Assembly: GCF_027257875.1 (NCBI RefSeq)
Contig: NZ_JAPVQY010000001.1
Location: 310,001 to 374,000, forward strand
DNA: 64,000 nt
Direction: 5' to 3'
Source of the DNA: Burkholderia sp. IMCC1007
GTDB lineage: Bacteria; Pseudomonadota; Gammaproteobacteria; Burkholderiales; Burkholderiaceae
The position numbers and the translations under genes were made by a program. The notes below the pieces were generated by a model. That model saw only the letters and a list, made by a program, of their open reading frames with translations, did no database searches and was not told the DNA's origin. Shown one piece after another: positions 44,262-58,198 of the stretch (position 1 is the first letter of the stretch; every line of letters begins with the position of its first letter).

Positions 44262-44289
44262 TCGGTTGATAATTCACGACAAGTTAAAT
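44262..44289. other. attL: dif-like XerCD site at the left prophage end
   Basis: The site has an 11-bp left arm ending in GATAA, the 6-bp centre TTCACG and an 11-bp right arm ACAAGTTAAAT (8 of 11 matching the general proteobacterial XerD half-site TTATGTTAAAT). It shares GATAATTCACG (44268-44278) with attR. After XerCD integration the left arm should be host-derived and the right arm phage-derived, or the reverse. Confidence 0.7.
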
Positions 44290-44307
44290 CGCTAACTAAA
44301 GCTCGTG

Positions 44308-44637
44308 CTACACCCGGCAGATGGTTGTCTGGCGGGCGTTAGCGGGCAACACGAGCGACCGAAAATTTCTGGAAAATTTTTCCCAGCGGCGCTCCCATTG
44401 GTCGCGCTGATCCTCACTCTTCGCACGCTCCGCGCGTGACGAAACGATCACTTCAAGCGGATTCACTTCCAGAATTTCGGCGACGTGAAACGCCACGTCA
44501 TCATCAAAAGTCGCGCGGCCGTTCCGGTATGCGCTCACAGCCGATCGCGTTACACCCAGCACCTTTGCCGCAGCGTAGTCGGACGGCAGGTCTAGACGCG
44601 CCTTCAGCGCGTCCAGCCACTCAGCAGTAGTTTTCAT
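44308..44637 (-). CDS. Phage repressor-like HTH protein (DUF3693-like)
   Basis: This 109-residue protein has a Cro/cI-type helix-turn-helix: DYAAAKVLGVTRSAVSAYRN (residues about 20-39) followed by DDDVAFHVAEILEVNPLEV. This is the DUF3693 pattern of small phage regulators. It is divergent from the replication operon and is the likely lysogeny repressor acting on the operator region 44689-44752. In the integrated state it has no terminator of its own before attL; see the terminator at 58081. Confidence 0.82.
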   Translation of the reverse strand: MKTTAEWLDALKARLDLPSDYAAAKVLGVTRSAVSAYRNGRATFDDDVAFHVAEILEVNPLEVIVSSRAERAKSEDQRDQWERRWEKFSRNFRSLVLPANARQTTICRV

Positions 44638-44688
44638 GACAGACCCCTTACAAATTTACTGACCCGGCGTCAAGCGTAGTTCAACGGT

Positions 44689-44761
44689 CATACCCACGCA
44701 ACGTGTTAGGTCATTACACGTGCAACAGCGTTTGACACGTGAAATGGGTATGAACTATTCT
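44689..44761 (+). promoter_or_regulatory. Early rightward promoter with operator repeats
   Basis: TTGACA at 44732-44737 and TATTCT at 44756-44761 are 18 bp apart and read toward the replication genes. An outer inverted repeat (CATACCCA 44689-44696, TGGGTATG 44745-44752) and three ACACGT/ACGTGT half-sites (44701, 44716, 44735) overlap it. This is a plausible repressor operator. Confidence 0.6.
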
Positions 44762-44863
44762 CCTGACCAAGCCCGGGGCTGGCGTCCTGACCCCGCCGGC
44801 GCGCCCTGACGGGGGCGCATCCCGGGCGATTCCCAATCGGGACGGGTCAGGCAGGGGCAGATC

Positions 44864-45034
44864 ATGCGTAAAGAGCCGTTACAAATTCACCAGGCCGCCT
44901 TGGGCGGCTACACGATCGACGGGCCGTACACACCTCAGGCGAGAGCGGGCGAGCGGGGCGGGCTAGTAGCGAAGCCGCCCCGCTTTTTTGCGTTCCGCTG
45001 CCTCGTCGCGCGGCTCTTCCGGTCGGGGGTGTGA
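44864..45034 (+). CDS. Phage leader peptide/small protein (56 aa), unknown
   Basis: ATG 44864 follows GGCAGGGGCAG. It reads MRKEPLQIHQAALGGYTIDG at the start and ends basic. Its second half is encoded by the GC-rich hairpin of the terminator at 44953-44989, so it may be a leader whose translation influences read-through rather than a working protein. No family was recognised. Confidence 0.5.
   Translation: MRKEPLQIHQAALGGYTIDGPYTPQARAGERGGLVAKPPRFFAFRCLVARLFRSGV
44953..44989 (+). terminator. Intrinsic terminator/attenuator early in the rightward phage transcript
   Basis: The stem GCGGGGCGG (44953-44961) pairs with CCGCCCCGC (44975-44983) and is followed by six T. It lies between the early promoter and all replication genes, so transcription must be able to pass it. 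Attenuation or a short immunity-type RNA is possible. Confidence 0.7.
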
Positions 45035-45035
45035 C

Positions 45036-45158
45036 GTGCTTTTCGCCTTCGGAATCGGCTTTGCCCTGGGCGCGACGGCCGCCGTCGCGGTCGTCGGCGG
45101 TGTGATCGCGCTCGCGATGCGCCATATGGATGACGGGGAGGGCGGACCATGCGCCTGA
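45036..45158 (+). CDS. Phage single-pass membrane peptide (40 aa)
   Basis: A GTG start follows a GGGGGT stretch. Residues 2-28 are one hydrophobic helix (LFAFGIGFALGATAAVAVVG) and the tail is acidic. It overlaps the next gene. Its role is unknown; many membrane-containing phages encode such peptides. Confidence 0.6.
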   Translation: MLFAFGIGFALGATAAVAVVGGVIALAMRHMDDGEGGPCA

Positions 45159-45241
45159 TCCGCTGCACGCACTGCGGCTCGATGCGCCGCCCTGGCGCTG
45201 CCTGCACGCGGTGCCTTCGCCTTTTCGTGTGGGGTGTCTGA
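45149..45241 (+). CDS. Phage zinc-ribbon micropeptide (30 aa)
   Basis: The frame MRLIRCTHCGSMRRPGAACT then RCLRLF has two CxxC pairs (C6, C9, C19, C22), enough to hold one zinc. It overlaps the genes on both sides (stop shared as ATGA with the next start), a sign of real coding. Binding to nucleic acid or protein is inferred. Confidence 0.6.
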   Translation: MRLIRCTHCGSMRRPGAACTRCLRLFVWGV

Positions 45242-45435
45242 TGGCCGGCGCCCCGGAATACCGCGAAAACCCGCGCACGACTGATCTCACGCCCGACGAG
45301 CGTGGCCATCAGGGCTTCTTCAACGGCCTGGTCCTGGACGACAACCCGCACGAATGGCTCTCCGACGACTGGCACGCCTGGCGCGCCGGCTGGTGCCGTG
45401 CTGAAGCCGAATTCAGCGAAGGGGAGGCGTTCTGA
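45241..45435 (+). CDS. RMF/CrpP-fold small phage protein (64 aa)
   Basis: The segment HQGFFNGLVLDDNPHEWLSD followed by WHAWRAGWCRAEAEF matches the ribosome-modulation-factor/CrpP pattern (G-x-x-A/G-F, D-NP, W-x-x-GW). That family includes RMF, which dimerises ribosomes, and CrpP, reported as a ciprofloxacin-modifying enzyme. The function in the phage is unknown. Confidence 0.6.
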   Translation: MAGAPEYRENPRTTDLTPDERGHQGFFNGLVLDDNPHEWLSDDWHAWRAGWCRAEAEFSEGEAF

Positions 45436-45437
45436 CG

Positions 45438-45806
45438 ATGACCGGCCCCTCATCCGCTTTCCTCGACCTGGGCTATACCGAGCCCAGCGAGCCCCGCCCC
45501 TCGCGCGCCCGCCGCGCTTCTGCCGTCCCCGTTCCCGTCCATCACGAAACCGCACCAGGCGACCGCTCGCCCGCTGCGGCCGCGCTGCGCGCCATGCGCA
45601 CCGCGATCGACGCGAAGCGGGGCTTCCTGCCGTCCGACCAGGGCGTGCGTGCTGGCGACGATCCGTTCGCCCGCGCGCAGCTGGCCGTCGCGTACGAGCG
45701 GCTTCGCGCGGCCCTGGCGCTCTACAACACCTTCGCGGCCGACCTGGACGTGCCAGGCGCGCGCGCCTTCATTGGCGACGTCGAAGTGCGGGAGGGCGGC
45801 CAGTGA
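45438..45806 (+). CDS. Phage hypothetical protein (122 aa)
   Basis: The protein has a Pro/Arg-rich, probably unstructured first 45 residues and a helical second half (ARAQLAVAYERLRAALALYN). It begins two bases after the previous stop and overlaps the next gene by four bases. No family was recognised; its place before Rep suggests an early, DNA-related role. Confidence 0.65.
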   Translation: MTGPSSAFLDLGYTEPSEPRPSRARRASAVPVPVHHETAPGDRSPAAAALRAMRTAIDAKRGFLPSDQGVRAGDDPFARAQLAVAYERLRAALALYNTFAADLDVPGARAFIGDVEVREGGQ

Positions 45807-45937: not shown

Positions 45938-47247
45938 CCGCCCCCGAAAAATTGCCGTCTGGTTTTCTTGGTATAAACGCGAAATCGATACACGCGGCCC
46001 GCACGCCCAATACCGACGCGGTTTCCCGGGCGAAGGCGAAGGGCCGCCTGCACGATCTCCTGCGCGTCTCCCAGTCGGTCATCTACGATCCGGCCGCGGC
46101 GAAGGAAGCGCAGCACCGCACGTGCTGGTGCCAGCGCGCGCTCACGTCCCCGGGCGAGACGCTCGGCGTGCGCCGCAACGTCGACGGCTCCGGCGCGAGC
46201 CTGGCCGGCGTGTCGACGTGCGGCTCGGTGTGGGCCTGCCCGGTGTGCTCGCTGAAGGTCTGCATGCAGCGCCAGGCCGAAGTGGCGGACGGCATGCGGG
46301 CGCACGTCGCGAACGGCGGCTACGTCTGGCTCATGACGAACACCTTCCCGCACGAAGCGGGCCAGCGGCCGCTCGCCGACATGCTCGCGCTGCAGGCGAA
46401 GGCGATGCAGAAATTCCAGAACTGCCGCACGTACAAGCGGATCCTGGGCAAGGGCGTGCGCGCCGGCTCGATCAAGGCGCTCGAAATCACGCTCGGCACG
46501 CACGGCTGGCACCCGCACACGCACTCCCTGGTGTTCGCGACGCCTGACGCGTTCGGCGACGTGAAGGAAGGCGACACCGGCCGCATGGCGTCGCGCCTCA
46601 TCGATGAGCTGAAGCGCGCCTGGTACGAGGCGTTGCTGAAGGTCGGTTTGTGCGAGCCGTCGCAGCTGTCGGACGTGCTCGATCACGGCCTGGACGTGCG
46701 CGGCGGCCAGTACGCGGCTGAGTACGTCGCGAAGTTCGGCCGTGACACGAAGTGGGGCCTGTCGCGCGAGCTGACGATGAACGCGGCGAAGATGGGCGGC
46801 GGACAGAAGGGCGCGCACCCGTTCCAGCTGCTCGAGTGGGCGGCGGCCGGCGACGGCCAGGCGGCCGCGCAGTTCCGTGAATACGTCGCCGCCTTCACCG
46901 GCCGCCGCATGCTGACCTGGACGCCTGGCCTGAAGGCCGCTCTTGGCCTCGACGAGCTCGAACAGTCCGACGAAGAAGCCGCGGCCGCGCAGCTGCCCGA
47001 AGAGGAGGTGGTCGGCGCGATCTCGGCCGAAGATCTGTCCGTGCTCACCGCGCGCAGCATGCTCGGCCGCTTCCTCGCGTTCGTGTCTGAGTACTGCTAC
47101 GACCCGTCGACGGCCCAGGCCGATATCGACGACTTCATGGCGTTCGCGCGCGAGCACGAGCGCAGGGCGAGCGGTGCGATCAGCGCGCCGTATTGGTCCG
47201 CCCGCACCCGCAAGTTCTACGACCCGGAAAGGGAAGCCCATGCCTGA
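45934..47247 (+). CDS. HUH-family rolling-circle replication initiator (Rep)
   Basis: This 437-residue protein has the HUH core: H193-P-H195-T-H197 as metal site (GWHPHTHSLVF) and catalytic tyrosines Y260 and Y264 in YAAEYVAKFGRD. A cysteine cluster (C96, C102, C105, C110) is typical of plasmid/phage Rep_1-like initiators. It nicks the plus-strand origin and starts rolling-circle replication, as P12 does in phage PM2. The last 100 residues are acidic and unassigned. No separate helicase or polymerase is encoded. Confidence 0.9.
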   Translation: MTAPEKLPSGFLGINAKSIHAARTPNTDAVSRAKAKGRLHDLLRVSQSVIYDPAAAKEAQHRTCWCQRALTSPGETLGVRRNVDGSGASLAGVSTCGSVWACPVCSLKVCMQRQAEVADGMRAHVANGGYVWLMTNTFPHEAGQRPLADMLALQAKAMQKFQNCRTYKRILGKGVRAGSIKALEITLGTHGWHPHTHSLVFATPDAFGDVKEGDTGRMASRLIDELKRAWYEALLKVGLCEPSQLSDVLDHGLDVRGGQYAAEYVAKFGRDTKWGLSRELTMNAAKMGGGQKGAHPFQLLEWAAAGDGQAAAQFREYVAAFTGRRMLTWTPGLKAALGLDELEQSDEEAAAAQLPEEEVVGAISAEDLSVLTARSMLGRFLAFVSEYCYDPSTAQADIDDFMAFAREHERRASGAISAPYWSARTRKFYDPEREAHA

Positions 47248-47431
47248 CCCGAATCAACACAAGCATCCGCACATCGAAACCCAGGTATGGGCGGACGATC
47301 TGCAGGACGCGAAACAGGAAGCTGCAACGCTCCGCGCGATGTTTGACAGGCTGACGCCGTTCGAACGCAGCATGGCGGCGAAACAGATCTCCGCCGTGAA
47401 GCGCCTGGTCGAGGCAGTCGAAAAGCTGTAA
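47240..47431 (+). CDS. Phage hypothetical helical protein (63 aa)
   Basis: It overlaps the Rep stop by eight bases. Residues 20-63 are strongly helical and charged (DDLQDAKQEAATLRAMFDRL, AVKRLVEAVEKL). No family was recognised; it may be a partner of Rep. Confidence 0.65.
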   Translation: MPDPNQHKHPHIETQVWADDLQDAKQEAATLRAMFDRLTPFERSMAAKQISAVKRLVEAVEKL

Positions 47432-47479: not shown

Positions 47480-47845
47480 ATGTCCGAAATCCAATCCCTG
47501 ATCGCGGCCGTGAAAGCGAAGGCCGAATCGCTCGCCGAGCTGATCGCCGGCAACCTGCCGCACACGTTGACGCTCACCGAGTTGGCCGACGCCGTGCATA
47601 CCGCGCTCGCCGATATCGAAGGCCGCGTCGCGGCGATCGAAGCGGCCGCAAAGGGTGATGTGGCGTCGATCGAACAGGCGCTGACCGACAAGCTGACGGC
47701 CTTCGTCGACGCCAAGATCGACACGTTCGCCCAGGGCGTCACGTCGACCCTGCAAAGCCACCTGTCGCAGATCCAGCAGGCCGTTACGCTGGCCGAAGGC
47801 GCGAAGACCGCCGTCGACGCGCTGAAGGCCGGCACGTCGGCCTAA
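47480..47845 (+). CDS. Phage coiled-coil protein (121 aa)
   Basis: Almost entirely helical with heptad-like repeats (LADIEGRVAAIEAAAKGDVA, then LQSHLSQIQQAVTLAEGAKT). A GAGAGGAAG site precedes the ATG. It has no membrane segment. A scaffolding, virion or DNA-binding role is possible but not shown. Confidence 0.7.
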   Translation: MSEIQSLIAAVKAKAESLAELIAGNLPHTLTLTELADAVHTALADIEGRVAAIEAAAKGDVASIEQALTDKLTAFVDAKIDTFAQGVTSTLQSHLSQIQQAVTLAEGAKTAVDALKAGTSA

Positions 47846-47860: not shown

Positions 47861-48190
47861 ATGTCCGCACCCGGAAAGTACATCGGCACCGTTCCCTGCA
47901 AGACGAAGGGCTGCTCGGAAGTGGTGAGGGTCAAGCTGAACAGGGGCGGACGCGCCTACGGCAAGTGCGATCGGTGCACGTGCCGATTCGAGTATGAGGG
48001 CCTCGCGCACTCCCAGCGCTTCGTGCGCGAGGAAGTCACGCTGCAGGCCGACCCATACGACGACAACCCCGGGAATCCTGGGGAAACCACGCCTCCCGGC
48101 GGTCCGACTCCGGCCGTCGATCCCAAGATAACCCCGGAGAAAACGAAGCGGCGCGGGCTGCTCACCGGCACTCCCTTCGAAGGGCTCTGA
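47861..48190 (+). CDS. Phage zinc-finger-like protein (109 aa)
   Basis: Residues 10-45 carry PCKTKGC and KCDRCTCRF, a probable zinc-binding fold near the N-terminus. The second half is Pro/Gly-rich and ends basic (KTKRRGLLTG). It is followed two bases later by the next gene. The function is unknown. Confidence 0.65.
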   Translation: MSAPGKYIGTVPCKTKGCSEVVRVKLNRGGRAYGKCDRCTCRFEYEGLAHSQRFVREEVTLQADPYDDNPGNPGETTPPGGPTPAVDPKITPEKTKRRGLLTGTPFEGL

Positions 48191-48192
48191 CC

Positions 48193-48759
48193 ATGGATAT
48201 CAAAGCGCTCGAACAGATCGGACAGGAAGAAGCGGCGGAGCGCGAGGCGCTCGCCGACGAACAGCAGGAGCAACTGCAGGCCGAAGTCGCGAAGGAAACC
48301 GCGTCGCTGTCGGACCAGTACTTCTTCGGGCTGAACAAGGCGCGCGGCGTCGTGCTGAAGATGCTGCCGGAGTGCACGGACGATTGGACCGACGACGTCA
48401 CGCACGAGATCGCCGACGCCCTGGCCGAATGCGATGCGTACTACGGCTGGGGCGGCGTCGCGAACGTGATGCAGCACCCGCTGCTCAAACTGGCGGCCGC
48501 GACCGTCCCGCTCGCCTGGAGCCTCGGCTTTGCACTGCGCAACCGCCGTATCCGCGCGCAGATGGAAGCGGCGGCCGCCGGCAGCGCCGGCAAGCATCAC
48601 GTCGTGCGCGCGGTCGCGCCGGCACCGGCGAAGCCCGGGCAGAACGTCGAGCCGATGCCGGCTGCAGCAGTCGTGCAGCCCGACGCCGCGCCTAGCGTCG
48701 AACCGGCTTTCGGCAGCGACCCGGGTGCGCTGATGGCTGACACATTGGAGGCAGCATGA
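48193..48759 (+). CDS. Phage membrane-associated protein (188 aa)
   Basis: Residues 1-45 form an acidic coiled coil (EAAEREALADEQQEQLQAEV). Residues about 95-115 are hydrophobic and end in arginines (LLKLAAATVPLAWSLGFALR), and the C-terminus is Ala/Pro-rich. Its stop overlaps the packaging ATPase start. It may link the ATPase to the virion membrane, by analogy with PRD1-type vertex proteins; that is inference. Confidence 0.65.
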   Translation: MDIKALEQIGQEEAAEREALADEQQEQLQAEVAKETASLSDQYFFGLNKARGVVLKMLPECTDDWTDDVTHEIADALAECDAYYGWGGVANVMQHPLLKLAAATVPLAWSLGFALRNRRIRAQMEAAAAGSAGKHHVVRAVAPAPAKPGQNVEPMPAAAVVQPDAAPSVEPAFGSDPGALMADTLEAA

Positions 48760-49406
48760 CGCGGCGCGCCGGTACGCGGCACGGCGGCATCATCGGTGTG
48801 ATCGGCCGCTCCCGATCGGGCAAGGGTGTGTGGATCAAGCGCTATTTCCTCCCCAAGTGGCGTGGCCCGGCGCTAGTCTGGTCGCCGCTCGAAAAATCCC
48901 GGCCGGACAACTACGCGGGGGAGATCGGCGGCGAATGCGTCTACACGATCCAGGAGCTGGTGAAGGCGCTGGCCGCCGGTAAGACGCGCCTGGTGTTTGT
49001 GCCGTCCCAGGATGATGCGGAGCGCGAAGCGCAGTTCGATCGCTTCTGCAGAATCCTGGAGAATCCCGGGTTCAAGCGGTGGCTCGTCATCGTCGAAGAG
49101 CTGATGCTGGTCACGAAGCCGAACAAGGCCCCGACTGCGTGGAAGAGCATGACCACGGCCGGCGCGCACTCGCGCGAGATGACGCTCATCGGCGTCTCGC
49201 AGCGGCCCGCGCAGGTCGACAAAGACTTCCTCGGCAATTGCACCGAGATCCACTGTTACGCGGTGTCGAACGTGGCCGACGCGAAGGTGATGGCCGACGT
49301 GCTGTTCGTCGACAAGGCCGAGATCCTCGGGCTGCAGAAATTCCACTACATCCACCGCGACGCGGAGAAAGGCGAGGTCACGACGGGCGCCGTGTCGTTC
49401 GAGTAG
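48756..49406 (+). CDS. DNA packaging ATPase (A32/PRD1 P9/PM2 P9-like)
   Basis: This 216-residue FtsK/HerA-superfamily ATPase has Walker A GRSRSGKG (17-24), Walker B WLVIVEEL (109-116, E114/E115) and the sensor stretch GVSQRPAQVDKDFLG (146-160). The size and the SQRP-xxVDK pattern fit the packaging ATPase of tailless double-jelly-roll viruses rather than a filamentous-phage Zot protein, which has a membrane segment. It lies just before the capsid genes, as in PM2. Confidence 0.82.
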   Translation: MTRRAGTRHGGIIGVIGRSRSGKGVWIKRYFLPKWRGPALVWSPLEKSRPDNYAGEIGGECVYTIQELVKALAAGKTRLVFVPSQDDAEREAQFDRFCRILENPGFKRWLVIVEELMLVTKPNKAPTAWKSMTTAGAHSREMTLIGVSQRPAQVDKDFLGNCTEIHCYAVSNVADAKVMADVLFVDKAEILGLQKFHYIHRDAEKGEVTTGAVSFE

Positions 49407-49533: not shown

Positions 49534-49707
49534 GTGTCCCTCTCTGCCTACCTGCCATCGAAACAGCGGCTCTCCCAGGAAGTCATCGCGACCACGGTCG
49601 GCGTCCTGGTCGCGGCTTGGATCATTTCCAAGTGGCCGGCCGCGCGGAAGCTGGTCGACGGCAACACGATCTGGTCCACGTCGCAATCTGACTTTCCCAC
49701 GTCCTGA
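49534..49707 (+). CDS. Phage single-pass membrane protein (57 aa)
   Basis: GTG start; residues about 16-32 are hydrophobic (VIATTVGVLVAAWIISKW) followed by basic residues. First gene of the virion set, directly before another membrane peptide and the capsid protein. It is probably a virion membrane protein, by position. Confidence 0.6.
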   Translation: MSLSAYLPSKQRLSQEVIATTVGVLVAAWIISKWPAARKLVDGNTIWSTSQSDFPTS

Positions 49708-49714
49708 GGTCCAC

Positions 49715-49843
49715 ATGAAAAACCCGCACGTCAAGACCGCAATCGTCGTTCTCGGCACGGTCGCCCTTTGCGCCTTCATCCAAAAGTCGGTGTTCCAGAT
49801 CCCCGTGATTGGCCCGTACCTGCCCGGCGGCGCCAACTCGTAA
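49715..49843 (+). CDS. Phage single-pass membrane protein (42 aa)
   Basis: ATG after TGAGGTCC; one hydrophobic helix (TAIVVLGTVALCAFIQKSVF, residues 8-27). It lies 45 bp before the capsid gene. Small membrane proteins next to the capsid gene are typical of PM2-type phages with an internal lipid bilayer. Confidence 0.6.
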   Translation: MKNPHVKTAIVVLGTVALCAFIQKSVFQIPVIGPYLPGGANS

Positions 49844-49888: not shown

Positions 49889-50743
49889 ATGCGCAAAGAA
49901 CAACTCGTCAACCTGCAGAACGTCAACCCGGGGCAGACCGCGCTGCTGTCGATCCCGTGCGGCCCGACGTACGAGCGCCTCAAGCTGTATCTCACCGGCG
50001 GCCTGCTGATCTCGATGCTCGACCTCATCACGATCAAGCAAAACGGAAAGCCGATTTGGGCGGTCGCGGGCTCCGACCTGCTCGCACAGAACCTGTACGA
50101 GGCGCAGTCGAACCCGACCAACGTCGCGCTGATCGACTTCACGCGGCGCGGCGCGAAAAGCTCGGCGACGCGAAACAGTGCGGGCGTGACGATCCAGTCC
50201 ACGCAGGTGCAGGAAGAGCTGTTCACGTGCTTGGCGACTGCCGGCCTGCAGCAGTGCACGATGGAAATCAAGATCAACGCGGCCGCGCCGGCCGGCATCG
50301 GCATGACGGCCTGGGCGCAGGAAGCCGACCCGTCGAAAAACCCGTGGATCTTCAAGGAACAGTCGGCGACGTACGCGCTGATGACGGTCGGTCAGAACGA
50401 TATCCCGCTGCCCGTGCAGCAGGCCGGCTCGGTGATCACGAAGATCTACCTGCACCAGTCGAACTACGGCCAGGCCGGCGCGGGCTCGATCCAGTCGCTG
50501 CAGATCCGCAACAACCAGGTGATCATCTCTGAGGGCACGCCGGCCGTGTACCAGGATGACCAGGTCGACTACAAGAAGGTGCCGCAGGCGGGCCTGTTCG
50601 TCGTCGACTTCGATCTGCAGGGCATGCGCGAGAAGTGGCTGAACACGACGCTGTCGAAAAACGTGTTCATCCGCGTCGTCACGCAGACCGGGCCGGTGTT
50701 CCTGACGGGCTACGCGAAGATCGTCGACCCGATCAACCGCTAA
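49889..50743 (+). CDS. Major capsid protein, PM2 P2-like (double jelly-roll)
   Basis: This 284-residue protein is beta-rich and has no membrane segment. Its N-terminus (LVNLQNVNPGQTALLSIPCG then YERLKLYLTGG) has the pattern of the P2 viral-coat N-terminal domain of corticovirus PM2. Its length is close to PM2 P2 (about 269). A late KVPQAGLFVVDFDLQGM stretch also fits the second barrel. It is the best-spaced gene of the set, with AGGAGCG before the ATG, consistent with high expression. The fold is inferred from pattern, not computed. Confidence 0.72.
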   Translation: MRKEQLVNLQNVNPGQTALLSIPCGPTYERLKLYLTGGLLISMLDLITIKQNGKPIWAVAGSDLLAQNLYEAQSNPTNVALIDFTRRGAKSSATRNSAGVTIQSTQVQEELFTCLATAGLQQCTMEIKINAAAPAGIGMTAWAQEADPSKNPWIFKEQSATYALMTVGQNDIPLPVQQAGSVITKIYLHQSNYGQAGAGSIQSLQIRNNQVIISEGTPAVYQDDQVDYKKVPQAGLFVVDFDLQGMREKWLNTTLSKNVFIRVVTQTGPVFLTGYAKIVDPINR

Positions 50744-50759: not shown

Positions 50760-51206
50760 ATGTCGCTCTACGACTTCTCCCTCGACGGGACCGGCATCGA
50801 CTCCGGTTCGGTCGACCCGAGCGGTGCCGATGCGTCGACGCTGTACGGCATCTATGGCCCCGACGCGACGAACTCGAACTACACATACGCGACGGCGCAG
50901 GACGCGTCGAACAACACGAGCCTGCCGTCGACGCTCGGCCAGATGCAGACGAACGGCAGCGATTCGAGCGGCAGCAATGGCGCTCTGTGGCTGTCCGGCT
51001 TCCAGTCGCTGCTAGGCGCCGCCGTGGCCGGCGACGCGATCGCGAACGGACTGACGGCACAAGGGACCGTGCCGGTCTATCGCGCGCCGAACGGCGTGAC
51101 GTACCCGGTCGGCTCCGGGCCGAGCCTCACGCACGGCAATGGTCTGGGAATGTTGCTGTTGATCGGCCTGGTGGTGCTGTTGCTCGATCACGAGGGGAGG
51201 GGCTGA
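50760..51206 (+). CDS. Phage virion-type membrane protein with Ser/Thr-rich exterior (148 aa)
   Basis: The first 75 residues are rich in Ser, Thr, Asn and Gly; residues about 80-95 and 125-142 are hydrophobic (GLGMLLLIGLVVLLL). It is likely a minor virion membrane protein. Its stop overlaps the next start (ATGA). Confidence 0.65.
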   Translation: MSLYDFSLDGTGIDSGSVDPSGADASTLYGIYGPDATNSNYTYATAQDASNNTSLPSTLGQMQTNGSDSSGSNGALWLSGFQSLLGAAVAGDAIANGLTAQGTVPVYRAPNGVTYPVGSGPSLTHGNGLGMLLLIGLVVLLLDHEGRG

Positions 51207-51472
51207 TGACTTCCCCGATCACTGCGGGTGCACCGTCCTGGGCAGGGATGCCGAATCTTTCGCTCGGCCTCGGCGGCGGACCGTCCGGCGCGTATTCGAC
51301 GACGAACAGTTCGTTTAACGACGGCTCGTTCGTCGTTTCGAATGGTGGCGGCTCGCTCGATACTGCGCTGGCCGGCACCGCGGCGGTCGGCAGCGGCATC
51401 CTGCAGCAATACCTTCCCTACCTCTTGCTCGGGGCGGTCGCATGGTACGTGCTGAAGCACCGCAAAGCCTGA
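51206..51472 (+). CDS. Phage virion-type membrane protein (88 aa)
   Basis: A Gly/Ser/Asn-rich N-terminus is followed by one C-terminal membrane helix (ILQQYLPYLLLGAVAWYVLK, residues about 65-84). Topology matches the neighbouring membrane genes: a polar exposed part anchored at the C-terminus. Confidence 0.65.
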   Translation: MTSPITAGAPSWAGMPNLSLGLGGGPSGAYSTTNSSFNDGSFVVSNGGGSLDTALAGTAAVGSGILQQYLPYLLLGAVAWYVLKHRKA

Positions 51473-51474
51473 CC

Positions 51475-51846
51475 ATGCGCCCGGCGACACGCGCGGAAAT
51501 CGCGTCCATGTTCTCGCCCGTCGATCGCTGGATGACGACGGGCGAGGGCGCGGCCGACTGCGCGGCGAAGGGTGATTGCTTCGTGCTCGAGCAGGACGGC
51601 GTGCCCGTGCTCGCCTGGTCGCTGAAGGTCGACGGCGATGAACTGTTCATCCAGGCGGCCGCCGGCCGCGCCGGTTTCGACCTGACCGAATTCGGGCTCG
51701 CGCTCGTCGAGCGCCAGGCGGACGGATTCCGTTCGATCGCCTTCCGCACGCGTCGGCGCGGCCTCATGAAAAAAGCCATCGACAACGGCTTCTACCCTGC
51801 CTGGCGCAAGGGCGACGTCGTGCTGATGCGAAAGGACCTGAAATGA
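51475..51846 (+). CDS. Phage GNAT-like small protein (123 aa)
   Basis: The sequence has an acetyltransferase-like rhythm: GVPVLAWSLKVDGDELFIQA, then RSIAFRTRRRGLMKKAIDNG with a terminal VVLMRKDL strand. The acetyl-CoA loop is not clear. It is soluble and sits among structural genes, so it may modify the virion or the host. The call is tentative. Confidence 0.5.
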   Translation: MRPATRAEIASMFSPVDRWMTTGEGAADCAAKGDCFVLEQDGVPVLAWSLKVDGDELFIQAAAGRAGFDLTEFGLALVERQADGFRSIAFRTRRRGLMKKAIDNGFYPAWRKGDVVLMRKDLK

Positions 51847-52355
51847 TTCTTCGCCCTCAACAGATCCACCTGGTGCGCCTCGGCCTGCCGTCGACGCCGT
51901 GCAACGGCGGCAGCTCGGACAGCGAAACGAAGACGAGCAACCAGAACGTCGACCAGCGGCTTGACGTCGGCGGCGGTGGCGTCGGCGCGACCGCTTCGAG
52001 CGGCGGCTCAGTGAACATCAACGTGACGCCGACCGATGCCGGATCGATCCAGCAATCGTTCGGCCTCGCGCACGATGCGCTGTCCGATGTGACTGCGATC
52101 GGTACATCGTCGGTGAGCGCGAGCACGCACACGGCCGAGCTCGCAATCACCGGTGCGCTCGACAGCGTCGCTGGCGCACAGGCGGCCTTCCAGCAAGCCA
52201 CGCAGGCGGTTCAATCCGCCTATCAGGATTCGTCGCAGCAAGTTTCCGCCGCATACCAGGACGCGAAGACCGGCAATCAGCGCGTGATCGTGATCGGCGC
52301 GCTCGTCGTCGTCGGCCTGGTCGTGCTCGCGCCTGTGCTGCGGGAGGCCGCGTAA
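51843..52355 (+). CDS. Phage virion-type protein with C-terminal membrane helix (170 aa)
   Basis: A polar Gly/Ser/Asn-rich first half, a helical Gln/Ala-rich middle (GAQAAFQQATQAVQSAYQDS) and a C-terminal membrane helix (VIVIGALVVVGLVVLAPVL, residues about 148-166). Overlaps both neighbours by four and one bases. Confidence 0.65.
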   Translation: MILRPQQIHLVRLGLPSTPCNGGSSDSETKTSNQNVDQRLDVGGGGVGATASSGGSVNINVTPTDAGSIQQSFGLAHDALSDVTAIGTSSVSASTHTAELAITGALDSVAGAQAAFQQATQAVQSAYQDSSQQVSAAYQDAKTGNQRVIVIGALVVVGLVVLAPVLREAA

Positions 52356-53044
52356 TGCAGACCATCAAGCAACTGCTCAAGGCCGGCCCTGGTCAGCGTT
52401 TCGGAATCAGCGGGAAAGTGTTCTTCCTGCAGTCGGCAGACCAGGGAAACAACGTCACGGTGCGGTTCGATTCCGGCAACTCGGAGGTGTACGAGGTCGA
52501 GGGCGTCGGCCAGTCGTTCAAAGCGTCGCCCGTCAATGGCTTCACTGGCGTCACGTTGACCGTACCCGTCGATACCAACGTCGTCTTCATCATCACGGAC
52601 GGCGACGTTGATCTGCAGTTCCTTCAGTCGACCGTCACGATCGGGAACGGTAACGGCAACCCTGTGCCGGTGTCGCTGCAGACGGCGGCGACCTTCACGG
52701 CATCAAATGTCGCGATCAACAATCCGCCGGCGAACCCGATTCCTACGCTCACGGTGCAAGCGTCGACGGTCACTGACTCCGCACCGGTCGCCGTGCCCGC
52801 GTTCAACGTCAGCGCGCCGAACCAGGTGCATATCCGAGCGGCCGGCGCATGTCGAGTGCTCCGGATCACCAATCCAGAAACGTCGAGCGGCATGCTGTTC
52901 GTGGGCGGCCCAGGCGTCACGCCCACGAATGCCGCGATTCGCCTGTCGCCAGGGGATATGGCGATCGAAACCGATGTGCCGCAGTTGGACTGGTATGCGA
53001 CCAGCGATAGCGGCGCAACCGCGAATGTGCAGGTGATTGCATGA
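52355..53044 (+). CDS. Phage beta-rich structural protein, possibly minor capsid or spike base (229 aa)
   Basis: The protein is rich in beta-strand residues and Val/Thr/Asn throughout, with no membrane segment. The end (IRLSPGDMAIETDVPQLDWY) resembles a small jelly-roll-like domain of virion proteins. It directly precedes the spike-like gene and overlaps it by four bases, so it could form the vertex base that carries the spike. Confidence 0.55.
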   Translation: MQTIKQLLKAGPGQRFGISGKVFFLQSADQGNNVTVRFDSGNSEVYEVEGVGQSFKASPVNGFTGVTLTVPVDTNVVFIITDGDVDLQFLQSTVTIGNGNGNPVPVSLQTAATFTASNVAINNPPANPIPTLTVQASTVTDSAPVAVPAFNVSAPNQVHIRAAGACRVLRITNPETSSGMLFVGGPGVTPTNAAIRLSPGDMAIETDVPQLDWYATSDSGATANVQVIA

Positions 53045-55314
53045 CCAGCATCGTTCGGAGCAATCGCTATCGACTGCCTGGCGCAGGCACGGTGTCGCGC
53101 GCCTATCGGGACAAGTTCGCGGAGCGCATCAGCCTGGGAGATTTCGGGCTCCCGACAAGCGGCGACGTCACGGCCTCACTGATGGCGTTCAACGCCTATG
53201 GGCGAGCCAATCCGAACAAGCGGACGGAACTGTTATTGCCCGCCGGCACACTGTCTTTTACGCGGCCGGACTGGATGCAGGGCATTCGCTGGTTCAAGCT
53301 GATCGGTGCCAATACGGTGCTGTACAACAGCAGCACCAGCGGAAGCACGACGCAACAAATCCCGCTCGATATCAACCCCGGTTTCAACCTGGACGGAACG
53401 TCGCAAGGCGTCGGCGGCACCTTCGTGCCTGGCTACCCGATCGCGACGCTGCCGCGCTTCTCGCGCATTGCAACGCTGCTGACGCCGAGCGACAGCGCAA
53501 ACTTTGCGATCGGATCGTGGGTGATGATCGAAGGCTATAACCAGGGTTCGTCGGGCTTCCCGGCGTCGATGCGTTACTTCGAATTCCTGCGCGTGAAGGC
53601 GGTCAACATCGCGACCGGCGCGATCACGTTCGATCGCGCGACCAAGTACAAATATCGGCAGGACTGGCTTGATATTCAAAGCAACGCGCCGCAGGCGGCG
53701 ACCGGTGCTGCGCGGCTGGTGCCGCTGAACCGCGCCGGCTTCAACGTATGTGAGTACGCGGGGTTCGAAAACATCGTGTTCGGCCCGAGTGCAGGCGCGA
53801 CCGATGGCGTCGTGAACTCGCTTGCCGGCTCGCTCTATACATCGGGATGCCTTGAGGTCGAGATCAAAGCGTGCCGTATCAACGGCTACTTTTACCCGAC
53901 CGAATCGGATACGGTGCGCGTCGTCGACTCTCACGTCGAATATTCGGAAGTCGACAAAAAGGTGTCGCACGTGCTGTTCGATAACTGCGAGATCGGCCAG
54001 ATCGACAACGGGCCGGCGTGCCGCAAGCTGTCCCTGTTGAACGGCACCCGCGTGCGTCGGCCGATCACGACGCTTGGCCCGCGCAAGTTCGTCTCGCACG
54101 ACTGCGAATTCCTGATCGGCGATGTCGACGCAAATCCGCGCGCTTCGCAATACATCAACATGGGGCTCTCGACTGCGGTCGAGACGATCGATATCGAGCG
54201 GCCAACGATCGACACGATCGACCCGTATGAAGTGCTCGGACAGCTGCCATCGCAGGCGGGCGCGAACAGCACGCAAATCGTGCTGCCAGCGTCGGCGTCG
54301 GCGACTGATGGAACCTACCTTGGCTACTCGGTGCGGATCGTTCGCGGCACCGGCGCGGGCCAATATCGGCAGATCTCCACGGCTGCCGGCAGCTATACCG
54401 GCGCGACCCGCACCGCTGTCGTCACGAACGCATGGTCGACTCAACCTGATGCGACCAGCATCGCGAAGGTCGAACGCGTGTTGCCGTTCCTCGCGGGAGG
54501 CAACCAGATTTCCGTAACGGTCGCGGCCGTCGACGCGAACGCGAACACCATCGAAGTTGCGCTGACCGCAAACGGGCTCAACGATCCGACAATCCGCGGG
54601 CTCGATACGGGATCTTTGTTGTCGAGCACGACGACGACGACGGTCATTCGCGTATCGGACATTTACTACAACCCCGCCACGGGGAACACGGTCATCGCGG
54701 GCGAGTGGTCGGCCGGCGGTGTGGTCGGATCGGCGACCGGTGTGCCGACCGTGGGCGAGGTGTTCGCCGCGAACATCGTGCGCCACGTGAGCCTGAAGCG
54801 GCCGCGTATTCGTGGCACCCAGCCGTACTACGACAACCGAAGCGCGAACAGCTACGGCGGGGCGCTCGATCTGGCCGGCCATATCTTGGCCGACGACGTA
54901 TCGATCGAAACGAAATACCGGAAGGGAAACTGTCTGGAGATCCCATTCCTGTTCCTGCAGGACGTCGACGGACTGCTCGCGTACTGGACGCAGATCAAGG
55001 GGCGACCGACGCGCTGGGTGATCGATGTGGTTGGCGCCTATACCGGCACGCAGCCGACCGCGACGCTCACGCTGTCGCGACCGAGTGCGGAAACCACGCC
55101 GGTGAATCCGGCCCCGGCGTCGATCGTGATCAATCTGAAGGTGGCGGGTACGCGTGTGATCGACGTTGCGGGCGTGCACGGCGCGCAAAGCGGCGACACG
55201 CTCGGCACTGGCATTACGCCGTTGTCGTTCTGGGATCAGTTGGTGGCGACCGTCTCGGCGGCGCTTGGCGACGCACCGCCGATCGGTTCGATCTTTATCG
55301 AATTCGCACCATGA
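53041..55314 (+). CDS. Large receptor-binding/spike-like protein (757 aa)
   Basis: The largest phage gene. The start has ISLGDFGLPTSGDVTASLMA, the pectate-lyase-like opening seen in beta-helix tailspikes. The middle is repetitive beta-rich sequence (DNCEIGQIDNGPACRKLSLL), consistent with a right-handed beta-helix, followed by beta-sandwich-like C-terminal parts. It is the likely vertex spike for host recognition. PM2's spike P1 is about half this size. No enzymatic residues were identified. Confidence 0.7.
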   Translation: MTSIVRSNRYRLPGAGTVSRAYRDKFAERISLGDFGLPTSGDVTASLMAFNAYGRANPNKRTELLLPAGTLSFTRPDWMQGIRWFKLIGANTVLYNSSTSGSTTQQIPLDINPGFNLDGTSQGVGGTFVPGYPIATLPRFSRIATLLTPSDSANFAIGSWVMIEGYNQGSSGFPASMRYFEFLRVKAVNIATGAITFDRATKYKYRQDWLDIQSNAPQAATGAARLVPLNRAGFNVCEYAGFENIVFGPSAGATDGVVNSLAGSLYTSGCLEVEIKACRINGYFYPTESDTVRVVDSHVEYSEVDKKVSHVLFDNCEIGQIDNGPACRKLSLLNGTRVRRPITTLGPRKFVSHDCEFLIGDVDANPRASQYINMGLSTAVETIDIERPTIDTIDPYEVLGQLPSQAGANSTQIVLPASASATDGTYLGYSVRIVRGTGAGQYRQISTAAGSYTGATRTAVVTNAWSTQPDATSIAKVERVLPFLAGGNQISVTVAAVDANANTIEVALTANGLNDPTIRGLDTGSLLSSTTTTTVIRVSDIYYNPATGNTVIAGEWSAGGVVGSATGVPTVGEVFAANIVRHVSLKRPRIRGTQPYYDNRSANSYGGALDLAGHILADDVSIETKYRKGNCLEIPFLFLQDVDGLLAYWTQIKGRPTRWVIDVVGAYTGTQPTATLTLSRPSAETTPVNPAPASIVINLKVAGTRVIDVAGVHGAQSGDTLGTGITPLSFWDQLVATVSAALGDAPPIGSIFIEFAP

Positions 55315-55961
55315 GCGCGGCACCTTTTCTCGTGCTCGTTGCTGGCGCGGCTGCGTTGCTGTACACGCAGTCGAGCAGCGCGAATGTCGCGCCGAGCGAT
55401 TCGAGTAGTGCGACGGACCTGGGATTTTCTGACCTGCTCGATAGCGCATCCGGCGCCTGGAGCGACTTAAACGGAACGGTGAATACGATGCTTGGCACGG
55501 CTGACAACCCGAATTACAACGGCTACGACGCGAACCTGTCCGCGTTCCTGTACATGCTGCGCATGGCCGAGTCGAACAACCGCTACAACGTCATCAACGG
55601 CGGCCGCACGTTTAGCGACTACAGCCGACATCCGAATATCGGTGTGCCGATCCCGTGGCGCCCGGGGAAGGTCAGCACCGCGGCAGGCGCATATCAATTC
55701 ATCTTCCGAACCTGGAACCAGGTCGCGGCGGAAGCTGGACTGCCCGATTTTTCGCCCCAAAGCCAGGATGCCGGCGCGGTGCAATACCTGTCGGACCTGG
55801 GCGCACTTCCGTATATCGAAGCCGGTGATCTGAATGGCGCGTATGCACAGATCAATGCGACCGGCGTCATCTTCGAGAGCTTGCCGAACGCACAGGGGCA
55901 CAACCGGAGCCCGGCACAGCTGCAGGCGTGGTATCAGGCTGCGGGAGGTGCATTCGCATGA
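55311..55961 (+). CDS. Membrane-anchored lambda-R-type lytic transglycosylase (GH104-like)
   Basis: Residues 4-19 are a hydrophobic anchor; residues about 75-216 match the lambda R endolysin. They have catalytic Glu87 in MLRMAESNNRYNVINGG, the FSDYSRHP motif (101-108), STAAGAYQF (122-130) and DFSPQSQDAGAVQYLSDLGA. It cleaves peptidoglycan. The anchor is absent in lambda R, so it may be a virion entry enzyme or a signal-anchor-release endolysin. Confidence 0.88.
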   Translation: MSAAPFLVLVAGAAALLYTQSSSANVAPSDSSSATDLGFSDLLDSASGAWSDLNGTVNTMLGTADNPNYNGYDANLSAFLYMLRMAESNNRYNVINGGRTFSDYSRHPNIGVPIPWRPGKVSTAAGAYQFIFRTWNQVAAEAGLPDFSPQSQDAGAVQYLSDLGALPYIEAGDLNGAYAQINATGVIFESLPNAQGHNRSPAQLQAWYQAAGGAFA

Positions 55962-56642: not shown

Positions 56643-56843
56643 ATGTCCTTATTCGATCGGCTCGGCGAACCGAGCACGCACGCCGGCATCGGCGTGATCG
56701 CAACCGCGGCGTCGACGGCCGCGATCCAGCTCGGCGCGAACCCGACCAAGGTCGGTGCGATCGCCGCGATCCTGCAGGCGCTTGTCGGCCTGTTCGCTGT
56801 CTTCGCGCCGGAAAGCGCGTCGACGCCGCCGGCCGGCCAGTAA
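56643..56843 (+). CDS. Holin-like phage membrane protein (66 aa)
   Basis: The protein has one or two hydrophobic helices (IGVIATAASTAAIQLGANPT and IAAILQALVGLFAVF) separated by a short loop, as in small class II holins or DUF-type lysis proteins. It lies after the transglycosylase. GTG starts at 56607/56610 would add 11-12 basic residues, and GGAGGG precedes ATG 56643 at a long distance. Confidence 0.6.
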   Translation: MSLFDRLGEPSTHAGIGVIATAASTAAIQLGANPTKVGAIAAILQALVGLFAVFAPESASTPPAGQ

Positions 56844-56853
56844 CGGAGGGCCT

Positions 56854-56991
56854 ATGGACGCAGCTCAATGGCTGACCATCGGCGTGAGCATCGTGCAGAT
56901 CCTGGTCGTGCCGGTGGGCTGCTTCCGCTACATCTTGGGGGTTGAGAAACGCCTTACGCGGATCGAAGCCAAACTCGGAATCGCAGACTGA
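56854..56991 (+). CDS. Phage small membrane protein (45 aa), spanin- or holin-partner-like
   Basis: Hydrophobic residues 6-22 (WLTIGVSIVQILVVPVGCF) are followed by a basic helix (EKRLTRIEAKLG). ACGGAGGG precedes the ATG. Such short membrane-plus-helix proteins are common in lysis cassettes; the exact role is unknown. Confidence 0.6.
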   Translation: MDAAQWLTIGVSIVQILVVPVGCFRYILGVEKRLTRIEAKLGIAD

Positions 56992-57002
56992 TCGGAGGAT
57001 CT

Positions 57003-57071
57003 ATGTCGAAGCACCATAAGCGCCGTACGCCGCCCCGCGACAGCAAGGGCCGCTTTCGCCGGAGGAAGTGA
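57003..57071 (+). CDS. Arginine-rich phage micropeptide (22 aa)
   Basis: The product MSKHHKRRTPPRDSKGRFRR then RK is nearly all basic, with GGAGGAT before its ATG and an ATGA overlap with the next gene. A 22-residue cationic peptide could condense virion DNA or disturb the membrane. The good ribosome-binding site and coupling argue it is real. Confidence 0.6.
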   Translation: MSKHHKRRTPPRDSKGRFRRRK

Positions 57072-57178
57072 TGAAAATTCACTGGGGGTCGTTCGCTATC
57101 GGAGCGGTCGTCGCGCTGGCATTCTCGGCGTGGAATGTCGCAGGGAACCTGCAGGCTGGAACGATTAGCCTGAACTGA
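57071..57178 (+). CDS. Phage signal-anchor micropeptide (35 aa)
   Basis: ATG overlaps the previous stop and follows CGGAGGAA. One hydrophobic stretch (FAIGAVVALAFSAWNVAG) makes a membrane anchor. It is the last gene of the rightward set, directly before the terminator. Confidence 0.6.
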   Translation: MKIHWGSFAIGAVVALAFSAWNVAGNLQAGTISLN

Positions 57179-57206
57179 AAAAGCCCCGGGAAAACCGGGG
57201 CTTTTT
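57178..57206. terminator. Bidirectional intrinsic terminator at the end of the virion genes
   Basis: AAAAAGCCCCGG pairs with CCGGGGCTTTTT around a short GAAAA loop. T-runs on both strands allow it to stop the rightward virion transcript and the leftward gene at 57210. Confidence 0.88.
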
Positions 57207-57209
57207 GAT

Positions 57210-57623
57210 TCAAGACACTGAAGTCCAATCCTGTAATGGGCATCCTCGCGCGTACGGAATTACTGCTGTGTCCTTGATCACAACAGCGCGCATTTCGGCG
57301 GAATCTCCGGAACCGCGTGCCATCAAGGCGACAGCCATCACATACTGTCGGCCGGTAATACCGATGTAGCGAATCACCAAAATATCCGACTGGTCAGCGC
57401 CATATTGCGGAGCTTCCTGAAGACTTAGCCGGGTGTCCTGCAGTCCTTGCATCCGCGCCGTCTTGTGGTAGCAGGTCAGCACCGCATGCGCGACGTCGCC
57501 GATCGCGCCACGTATTTCATTCGGGCTAACGGCGCCAGGTGCGACCGCCCGATTGACTGCGGCATTGACTACCTGTGGATCTTTGGTGACAAATTGATAA
57601 ACGAGCATGAGAGCGGAAAGCAT
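57210..57623 (-). CDS. Phage leftward hypothetical protein (137 aa)
   Basis: The protein begins with a hydrophobic stretch (MLSALMLVYQFV) and continues as an alpha/beta protein (ILVIRYIGITGRQYVMAVAL). AGGAGACC precedes its ATG. It is opposed to the virion genes, so it is a candidate lysogenic-conversion or superinfection-exclusion gene expressed from the prophage. No family was recognised. Confidence 0.6.
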   Translation of the reverse strand: MLSALMLVYQFVTKDPQVVNAAVNRAVAPGAVSPNEIRGAIGDVAHAVLTCYHKTARMQGLQDTRLSLQEAPQYGADQSDILVIRYIGITGRQYVMAVALMARGSGDSAEMRAVVIKDTAVIPYARGCPLQDWTSVS

Positions 57624-57672
57624 CGGATTGGTCTCCTAGGGTGATCGCGGGCAATTATCACCGGCTACAACG

Positions 57673-57695
57673 AAAAAACCCGACATAAGCCGGGT
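57673..57695 (-). terminator. Intrinsic terminator after the leftward HTH gene
   Basis: On the minus strand ACCCG and CGGGT form a short stem followed by six T. It makes the HTH gene at 57704 a separate unit from the gene at 57210. Confidence 0.65.
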
Positions 57696-57703
57696 CTCGT
57701 CGG

Positions 57704-58066
57704 TCAGGCAATACGGCGCGGCTCGGGCGCGTCCGGGATCAGCTCCAGCTGCACCAGGGCCGGATACTGGATGATCGGATCGTTCGCGGCGCACGGCCGC
57801 GACGCAGCTAGCCGCGCGCAGGCCCGCGCGGAAACCTTCGCGTCCTGAGCCGCCCAAGTCATTTCGCGCATGCGCTGCCAGTGCTCGAATTGCCGTAGAC
57901 GCAGCAGCTCGGGCACCCAGAACGGTAATCGCTCCCGTCCAGCCAACCAGTCGCGCACACAGCGCTCAGATCGCCGCAGCTCGCGCGCCAGCTGCGCGAG
58001 GGTGCGGCCGGCGGCGTAGTGTTGAAACTCAGCATGTTTCCCGTATCGCAGGTTTGGGTATCGCAT
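57704..58066 (-). CDS. Phage HTH-type regulatory protein (120 aa)
   Basis: Residues about 18-50 read AGRTLAQLARELRRSERCVR then DWLAGRERLPFWVPELLRLR, a helix-turn-helix with the tail pattern of small phage regulators acting as Cro-like or immunity proteins. The rest is Arg/Ala-rich. The leftward terminator at 58081-58109 ends only 14 bases upstream of its start, so its promoter position is puzzling. Confidence 0.68.
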   Translation of the reverse strand: MRYPNLRYGKHAEFQHYAAGRTLAQLARELRRSERCVRDWLAGRERLPFWVPELLRLRQFEHWQRMREMTWAAQDAKVSARACARLAASRPCAANDPIIQYPALVQLELIPDAPEPRRIA

Positions 58067-58080
58067 CGTTTTTCTTGTCC

Positions 58081-58109
58081 AAAAAAATAGCCGGGAGGAA
58101 TCCCGGCTA
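58081..58109 (-). terminator. Leftward terminator that would serve the repressor gene in the circular phage
   Basis: On the minus strand TAGCCGGGA and TCCCGGCTA form a stem (58088-58109) followed by seven T (58087-58081). In the prophage it has no phage gene upstream. In the excised circle attP would bring the repressor gene (44308-44637, minus) directly upstream, about 90 bp away, making it that gene's terminator. Confidence 0.8.
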
Positions 58110-58170
58110 CGGCATCGTGCGTTGGCAAAATTACGGTGGTTTTGGGGTCAGACTCAGAGTCCCGCGATTT

Positions 58171-58198
58171 AACTTCGATAATTCACGTTATGTAAAAT
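58171..58198. other. attR: dif-like XerCD site at the right prophage end
   Basis: An 11-bp left arm AACTTCGATAA, centre TTCACG and right arm TTATGTAAAAT, which matches the general XerD half-site TTATGTTAAAT at 10 of 11. The 28-bp 11-6-11 layout is that of dif. It shares GATAATTCACG (58177-58187) with attL. The strong right arm suggests that it derives from the host dif. Confidence 0.78.

What the first reader, a model, noticed from the sequence alone, without database searches (positions are those of the whole stretch)
44262..58198. Tailless PM2/corticovirus-like prophage in Burkholderia, integrated by host Xer at a dif-like site
Seen: a 13.9-kb unit between two dif-like 11-6-11 sites that share GATAATTCACG. 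It has no integrase, terminase, portal or tail genes. It does have an HUH Rep, an SQRP-VDK-type packaging ATPase, a P2-like capsid protein, about ten one-helix membrane proteins and a lambda-R-like anchored lysin. Known: PM2 has this gene set (rolling-circle P12, ATPase P9, capsid P2, internal membrane), and filamentous phages such as CTXphi integrate at dif with XerCD. Inference: a double-jelly-roll, membrane-containing phage that uses Xer integration, at a size larger than PM2 (about 10 kb). That combination looks new, or at least little described.
Basis: partly seen in the sequence, partly recalled or inferred. Interest (0 to 1): 0.95.

Follow-up and report, generated by a model that had tools for sequence, protein, structure and literature searches.

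The report
Tailless prophage in a host dif site
This stretch of a Burkholderia-type genome holds a 13.9-kb prophage of the tailless, PM2-like kind, predicted to have an inner membrane, that lies inside the host's own chromosome-resolution (dif) site and likely got there with the host's XerC/XerD enzymes; that lifestyle is already described for relatives, and the new part is a regular half-broken layout of its attachment sites.

Summary
Between two 11-6-11 sites (44263-44289, 58172-58198) lies a tailless provirus with a PM2 P2-type double-jelly-roll capsid protein, P9-type packaging ATPase, rolling-circle-type Rep, phage lysozyme and ten proteins with one membrane-helix-like segment; the window holds no integrase match. 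The target is a native dif: its core occurs once in each of 38 of 65 same-genus genomes, and a phage-free genome (G038) shows the empty site. XerC and XerD genes are present. The claimed novelty is not supported: Vibrio phage NO16 and Rhodobacter phage Jorvik are tailless relatives already proposed to integrate at dif-like sites with host XerCD. What I add: among 398 genomes of the host family, 15 carry such a capsid gene; all 15 have a canonical dif at the provirus' right (lysis) end, 13 have a left mate with the same 6-bp centre, and in all 13 the inner arm of that left site is degenerate (XerD arm in five, XerC arm in eight). PM2, Cr39582, Jorvik and, more weakly, NO16 fit. Integration would thus rebuild one working dif and leave one disabled site, which could keep both chromosome resolution and lysogeny (inferred). 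New member of a known kind, with a testable attachment-site rule.

The parts
43746..44256 (-). Remnant of an IS1202-type insertion sequence (transposase fragment 43805-44152), its end (44244-44256) next to the XerC arm of the left site; host side
   Evidence: Matches the IS next to dif in several same-genus genomes; IS end located; family name by comparison with PMC10132070
44263..44289 (+). Left attachment site: CGGTTGATAA (host XerC arm), TTCACG, ACAAGTTAAAT (phage, degenerate XerD arm)
44308..44637 (-). gp01, HTH regulator (PHROG 4441, as PM2 gp c, NO16 and VruC HTH proteins), likely repressor
45130..45435 (+). gp02, unknown
   Evidence: ORF; similar in L009
45438..45806 (+). gp03, unknown; 100% in L009, 67% in L051
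45934..47247 (+). gp04, Rep (Pfam Rep_1), rolling-circle-type initiator
47240..47431 (+). gp05, small protein
47480..47845 (+). gp06, unknown
47861..48190 (+). gp07, unknown, cysteine-rich
48193..48759 (+). gp08, unknown, one borderline TM-like segment; position of PM2 gp h
   Evidence: position only
48756..49406 (+). gp09, packaging ATPase, PM2 P9 type, Walker A GRSRSGKG
49534..49843 (+). gp10 (49534-49707) and gp11 (49715-49843), small proteins with one TM-like segment; position of PM2 P7
   Evidence: position only
49889..50743 (+). gp12, major capsid protein, PM2 P2-type double jelly roll
50760..52355 (+). gp13 (50760-51206), gp14 (51206-51472), gp15 (51442-51846; position of the GNAT gene of relatives, no Pfam GNAT match), gp16 (51843-52355): probable virion/membrane block; gp13 and gp16 with one TM-like segment
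   Evidence: roles by position
52355..55314 (+). gp17 (52355-53044) and gp18 (53041-55314, 757 aa, no similarity found in the six other same-genus proviruses): likely spike and receptor-binding proteins
   Evidence: roles by position
55311..55961 (+). gp19, lysozyme with one N-terminal TM-like segment
55958..57178 (+). gp20-gp25, small proteins, four of them with a TM-like segment (gp21, gp22, gp23, gp25); likely lysis helpers and minor virion proteins
   Evidence: roles inferred
57210..57623 (-). gp26, unknown
57704..58066 (-). gp27, HTH protein at the right end (PHROG 10187), beside attP in the circular form
58172..58198 (+). Right attachment site, canonical dif: ACTTCGATAA (phage XerC arm), TTCACG, TTATGTAAAAT (host XerD arm)

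Best explanation
[quoted passage not shown] Its circular form would carry an attP with a good XerC arm, the 6-bp centre TTCACG of the host dif and a degenerate XerD arm. Exchange within the shared centre would give the two sites seen: on the right a canonical dif, so the replicon keeps a resolution site; on the left, beside the repressor gene, a site with a poor XerD arm, which should resist FtsK-activated excision and so stabilise the lysogen. Replication would be rolling-circle through gp04, packaging by gp09 into a double-jelly-roll capsid over a membrane, release by lysis with gp19. Shown: genes, sites, shared centre, good and degenerate arms, native dif, empty site in a relative, xerC and xerD genes. 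Inferred: virion, Xer catalysis, control of excision, activity.
For: Capsid, ATPase, Rep and lysin matches; no integrase in the window; native dif present once in each of 38 of 65 same-genus genomes, 0 in the reversed control; XerD and XerC equivalogs over cut-off in the same genome; empty site in G038, with IS, intact dif and core flank in order; predicted attB found exactly in G004; same layout in 13 of 15 proviruses of the family, 6 of 8 of them found after the rule was formed, against 4 of 400 random 10-kb stretches giving a mate; attP-like sites of the free phages PM2, Cr39582 and Jorvik.
Against: No virion, circle, induction or Xer dependence shown. The window's left flank (30001-43745) and 2 kb right of the provirus (58199-60188) do not match next to dif in the five phage-free loci compared, so the empty site rests on the IS junction on one side and flank from 60191 on the other. 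The structure model is modest (pLDDT 71.6, pTM 0.45; rmsd 18.6-19 A over both halves). No P1 spike homologue was identified. Two of 15 proviruses lack an exact mate.
Confidence: 0.85

Rival explanations
1. A decayed element: inserted by Xer in the past, now unable to make virions.
For: No activity is shown; the spike was not identified.
Against: All main genes are open frames in a compact array; both attachment sites are intact in layout; L009 keeps 91% capsid, 95% ATPase and 97% Rep identity in the same order.
Confidence: 0.2
2. Integration by an unlinked phage or plasmid tyrosine recombinase that happens to use dif, not by XerCD.
For: The genome has 18 Phage_integrase matches; PMC11630473 reports that Vibrio tailless prophages at dif regularly carry integrase genes.
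Against: No integrase in the window; the sites have the 11-6-11 XerC/XerD form and centres follow the host replicon's dif.
Confidence: 0.08
3. The degenerate arm is decay after insertion and not a built-in feature of attP.
For: Once a canonical dif is rebuilt, the other site is free to drift.
Against: Only the inner (phage) arm of the left site is degenerate in 13 of 13 pairs; window, L009 and L051 share the sequence next to it; free phage genomes PM2, Cr39582 and Jorvik show it too, NO16 more weakly.
Confidence: 0.12

Closest known systems
Vibrio phage NO16 (fNo16), Asemoviridae, Vinavirales (PMC9966536; PMC12451628)
   Same: Tailless, P2-type capsid and P9-type ATPase, temperate, proposed XerCD integration at dif-like sites; PHROG 4441 HTH gene beside a candidate attP with good XerC arm, dif-like centre and poor XerD arm
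   Different: 10.6 kb; gammaproteobacterial host; capsid protein about 26% identical and in another clade
Rhodobacter phage Jorvik, Mestraviridae, Vinavirales (PMC10589892)
   Same: Tailless, membrane-containing, no integrase, att sites like dif; annotated attP coincides with a site of good XerC and poor XerD arm
   Different: 8.76 kb, alphaproteobacterial host, other regulator, replicase and lysins; too distant for the capsid tree
Pseudoalteromonas phage PM2, Corticoviridae
   Same: P2 capsid fold, P9 ATPase, PHROG 4441 HTH gene, dif-like site between gp a and gp c
   Different: 10.1 kb; lytic isolate; XerC arm degenerate instead of XerD arm; P12 Rep; P5 instead of a lambda-type lysozyme; separate capsid clade
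Vinavirales clade D, proposed 'Neaeraviridae' (PMC9502842)
   Same: Prophages of mainly Betaproteobacteria, with T4lyz-like lysins and conserved Vinavirales genes, according to the passages read
   Different: Membership not testable here: the accession lists are in supplements; no integration mechanism given there
TLC-phi, Xer-dependent satellite phage of Vibrio cholerae (PMC4246890)
   Same: attP with XerC arm and centre like dif and a degenerate XerD arm; uses host XerC/XerD
   Different: Filamentous-phage satellite without virion genes; the XerC-broken mirror form is not described in the passages read

Membership tests
[quoted passage not shown]
   Pfam P2_N and P2_C over cut-off; PM2 P2 best Foldseek hit, E 1.2e-16
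Order Vinavirales | FtsK/HerA-type packaging ATPase of the P9 family upstream of the capsid gene | tested here: met
   PHROG 2666, tblastn to PM2 P9, Cr39582 and fNo16; gene order
Order Vinavirales | P1-type spike protein | tested here: inconclusive
   gp17 and gp18 sit at the right place but match no family or solved structure
Order Vinavirales | Nine signature genes shared by the ICTV families (PMC12451628) | not tested
   The list of nine was not seen; only capsid and ATPase were matched by sequence
Family Corticoviridae (PM2) | Capsid protein in the PM2/Cr39582 clade | tested here: not met
   Falls in a clade of Burkholderia sequences and P0021, apart from PM2, Cr39582, NO16, VruC, Autolykiviridae (99/96)
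Family Asemoviridae (NO16) | Capsid protein with NO16/VruC | tested here: not met
   Same tree; identity to NO16 26% over 250 residues
Family Mestraviridae (Jorvik) | Capsid protein with Jorvik/YY | tested here: inconclusive
   Jorvik on a very long branch and the YY row a wrong translation; both dropped
Proposed Neaeraviridae (clade D) | Capsid protein within clade D of PMC9502842 | not testable with these tools
   Accession lists lie in supplementary files, which could not be opened
Xer-dependent integrative elements (IMEX) | No integrase gene of its own | tested here: met
   No Phage_integrase match in the window
Xer-dependent integrative elements (IMEX) | Insertion at a dif site with a canonical dif rebuilt | tested here: met
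TLC-type attP | XerC arm and centre like dif, XerD arm degenerate | tested here: met
   XerC arm 0 of 6 scored mismatches, centre identical, XerD arm 3 of 10
TLC-type integration | XerC- and XerD-dependent, XerD-first, FtsK-independent strand exchange | not testable with these tools
   needs an experiment; xerC and xerD genes present

The most novel reading that the evidence does not exclude
Tailless Vinavirales phages share a 'half-dif' attP: one arm binds Xer well, the other, on the repressor/Rep side, is broken, so that integration always rebuilds a working dif at the lysis end and parks a disabled one at the repressor end. The lineage uses this in two mirror forms, XerD-arm-broken (like TLC-phi) and XerC-arm-broken (as in PM2), aims at the dif of different replicons by matching the 6-bp centre, and moves the regulator-attP-Rep cassette between capsids that share only about 27% identity.
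Probability: 0.6. Interest if true: 0.68.

Novelty: new member of a known kind. Interest (0 to 1): 0.55.

Why it matters
PMC9502842 wrote in 2022 that the integration mechanisms of most Vinavirales prophages remained unclear; later papers proposed XerCD for single phages. A shared half-dif layout would turn this into a rule that predicts, from sequence alone, where such a provirus ends and which way it points, and explains how a lysogen can keep chromosome resolution with a prophage inside dif. The XerC-broken form makes a direct biochemical question testable: how XerCD completes the exchange when one partner lacks a good XerC arm.

Tried and rejected
Rejected: gp27 as a DUF3653 protein: no Pfam match at E 10, no significant BLAST or hhalign similarity to PM2 gp a or the L010 right-end gene. 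The L010 right-end gene itself matches DUF3653 (E 6.3e-7, over cut-off) and PM2 gp a just under the cut-off (E 2.5e-4, 21.6 of 22.4 bits). That DUF3653 is the family of the TLC-phi Xer activation factor is recalled from memory; that paper (PMC6744903) is not held, and searches for it gave unrelated papers and a citation. My first idea, that the window's attP is VGJ-like, was wrong: PMC4246890 shows it is TLC-like.

Led nowhere: IMG/VR scan with the capsid alignment (54 pattern matches, no relative); plasmid search with the capsid protein (none); flank comparison for the other proviruses: one side matched close to a native dif only for L010 (ends 109, 186 and 465 bp from dif in L073, L071 and L086); L009 and L050 match only after about 3-4 kb, L051 not clearly; PDB search with gp18 (none); exact mates for L105 and L107: L107 has a left site with a perfect XerD arm and broken XerC arm, but its centre differs at 2 of 6 bases and equals the reverse complement of the right one; L105 has none; both are left out of the 13. 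VruC (weak candidate) and YY (none convincing) are left out of the free-phage comparison; Marinomonas phage MfV is not held. One search held a wrongly translated YY row and a very long Jorvik branch; both were dropped, where the join of L050 and L051 is flagged as possibly false. One search left out L048, the window's own right site. A search of the host class did not complete.
Full report
WHAT WAS CHECKED. The window is G000:C1:310001-374000 of an unnamed 8.57-Mb draft genome. As sites: left CGGTTGATAA-TTCACG-ACAAGTTAAAT, right ACTTCGATAA-TTCACG-TTATGTAAAAT.

THE TARGET IS A NATIVE dif. The pattern ATAATTCACGTTATGTAAAAT (one mismatch allowed) occurs in 38 of 65 same-genus genomes, once in each, and in no reversed control. 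A general dif pattern hits 61 of 65 with up to four copies each, 0 in the control. Centres differ between replicons, as for the two B. mallei chromosomes tabulated in PMC2731167 (passages). In the window's own genome dif candidates lie on contigs C1, C50 and C95, and XerC and XerD equivalogs are present. Next to the XerC arm of this dif an IS1202-type end motif is found in 28 of 29 loci, against 51 of 1300 random stretches; PMC10132070 (abstract, passages) reports that this IS family targets the XerC side of dif.

EMPTY SITE. In G038 (L062) the same IS (80% over 520 bp) ends at 9425, the intact dif is at 9413-9392, and the window's core flank (60191-64000, 90%) starts at 9211; the provirus and the 2 kb next to it are absent. 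G038 has no P2_N match. The 27-bp attB predicted from the outer arms of the window is present exactly in G004. For L010 the right flank runs to 109, 186 and 465 bp from the native dif in G002, G060 and G004, which have no P2_N match.

THE HALF-dif RULE. P2_N hits 7 of 65 same-genus genomes and 15 of 398 genomes of the family, these seven included. In the seven, each provirus lies between a canonical or near-canonical dif at its right (lysis) end and a left site with the same 6-bp centre: TTCACG three times, TGATGA, TTATGA, ATCACC, TTGAGA. With arms sorted into outer (host) and inner (phage), attB has 0-2 mismatches in the scored positions, and attP has one broken arm: XerD (3-5 mismatches) in window, L009, L010, L051; XerC (3-4 of 6) in L011, L012, L050, where the site also points the other way. 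The broken arm is always the inner arm of the left site. I then applied this to eight proviruses from other genera fetched afterwards: one good dif, at the right end, in 8 of 8; exact-centre mate in 6 of 8; inner left arm broken in 6 of 6 (five XerC, one XerD; L109 is the mildest at 4.5 of 7.5). The criterion would also have accepted mates with two good arms; none was found. A mate arises in 4 of 400 random 10-kb stretches. Totals: right-end dif 15 of 15, mate 13 of 15, half-dif 13 of 13 (five XerD-broken, eight XerC-broken). In 12 of these 13 the gp01-type HTH gene lies beside the left site; in L010 no gp01 homologue was found. The proviruses are not independent: window, L009 and L051 share Rep at 91-97%, and L011 and L012 have nearly the same capsid gene.

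FREE PHAGES. PM2 and Cr39582 have a site with perfect XerD arm and poor XerC arm between gp a and the PHROG 4441 gene gp c, tied for best score in the genome; PMC9966536 mentions the PM2 site. Jorvik's annotated attP (1-16) coincides with a site of good XerC and poor XerD arm. NO16 has GGTGCGCATTA-TGTATA with a poor XerD arm just after its PHROG 4441 gene, but it ranked only third in the 351-bp stretch that I searched because of the rule, so it is weak support. VruC and YY are undecided.

MODULE EXCHANGE. L051 shares Rep (91%), gp03 (67%) and gp27 (74%) with the window but 27% in the capsid protein. L010 and L050 carry a Phage_GPA Rep instead, and so by similarity do L012 (596-aa ORF) and all eight proviruses of the other genera; L011's Rep was not examined. 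In the circular form gp27-attP-gp01-gp03-Rep is one continuous cassette, which seems to have moved between distant capsids.

LITERATURE. Seen: PMC9966536 (abstract, section 2.5, passages), PMC10589892 (abstract, integration section, passages), PMC11630473 (passages), PMC9502842 (passages, first of two parts of section 3.2), PMC5894146 (passages), PMC4246890 (passages, TLC section), PMC10132070, PMC2731167, PMC7307601 (passages), PMC12451628 (passages, Vinavirales section). dif/Xer use by tailless phages is therefore known. The half-dif rule and the XerC-broken mirror form did not appear in what I read; searches listed no paper that I recognised as describing them, but listings and passages are not whole texts, and subscription papers and supplements were out of reach.

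MECHANISM. Seen: genes, sites, centres, arms, native dif, recombinase genes, empty site. Inferred: rolling-circle replication, packaging, membrane, lysis, XerCD exchange in the shared centre, and that the broken arm blocks FtsK-driven excision while the rebuilt dif serves the chromosome. Whether gp01, gp27 or, in L010, a DUF3653 protein steers Xer action is open.

VERDICT. A real, well-formed provirus: a new member of Vinavirales outside the Corticoviridae and Asemoviridae capsid clades, of a lineage perhaps already sketched as clade D; its integration mode is known in kind, and the attachment-site rule is the part worth testing.

Noticed in passing
window 43746-44256; L020-L049 except L048: An IS1202-type IS end motif lies within 53 bp of the XerC arm of the TTCACG dif in 28 of 29 loci (51 of 1300 random stretches); by a rough measure 5-6 bp from the arm in 18 of the 28. 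Nearly every copy of this dif seems to carry such an IS.
   Followed up: partly
L011, L012 10001-10993; proteins P0008, P0010, P0011, P0013-P0018: Relatives' capsid proteins carry an insert of about 50 residues; nine of the 21 hits are annotated with a carbohydrate-binding module, PF02839.
   Followed up: no
L010 16923-17456; PM2 (L088) 77-550: A DUF3653 protein sits beside the attachment site in both (25% over 118 residues, E 2.3e-4); by recall the family of the TLC-phi Xer activation factor.
   Followed up: partly
window 57003-57071: A 22-residue, very basic peptide (gp24) is 95% identical in L009 and L010 and 70% in L011 and L012; function unknown.
   Followed up: no
window 56854-56991: gp23 is 98-100% identical in L011 and L012 but not found in L009, the closest relative otherwise: recent exchange in the lysis region.
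   Followed up: no
window 58199-60188: A block with two HSP20-like genes lies between the right site and the conserved flank; in other genomes its matches lie elsewhere, not beside this dif.
   Followed up: partly
L107 4690 and 15956 (locus turned so that the capsid gene is forward): The two sites of this provirus have centres that are reverse complements of each other (TGATGA, TCATCA), as if one site were inverted.
   Followed up: no
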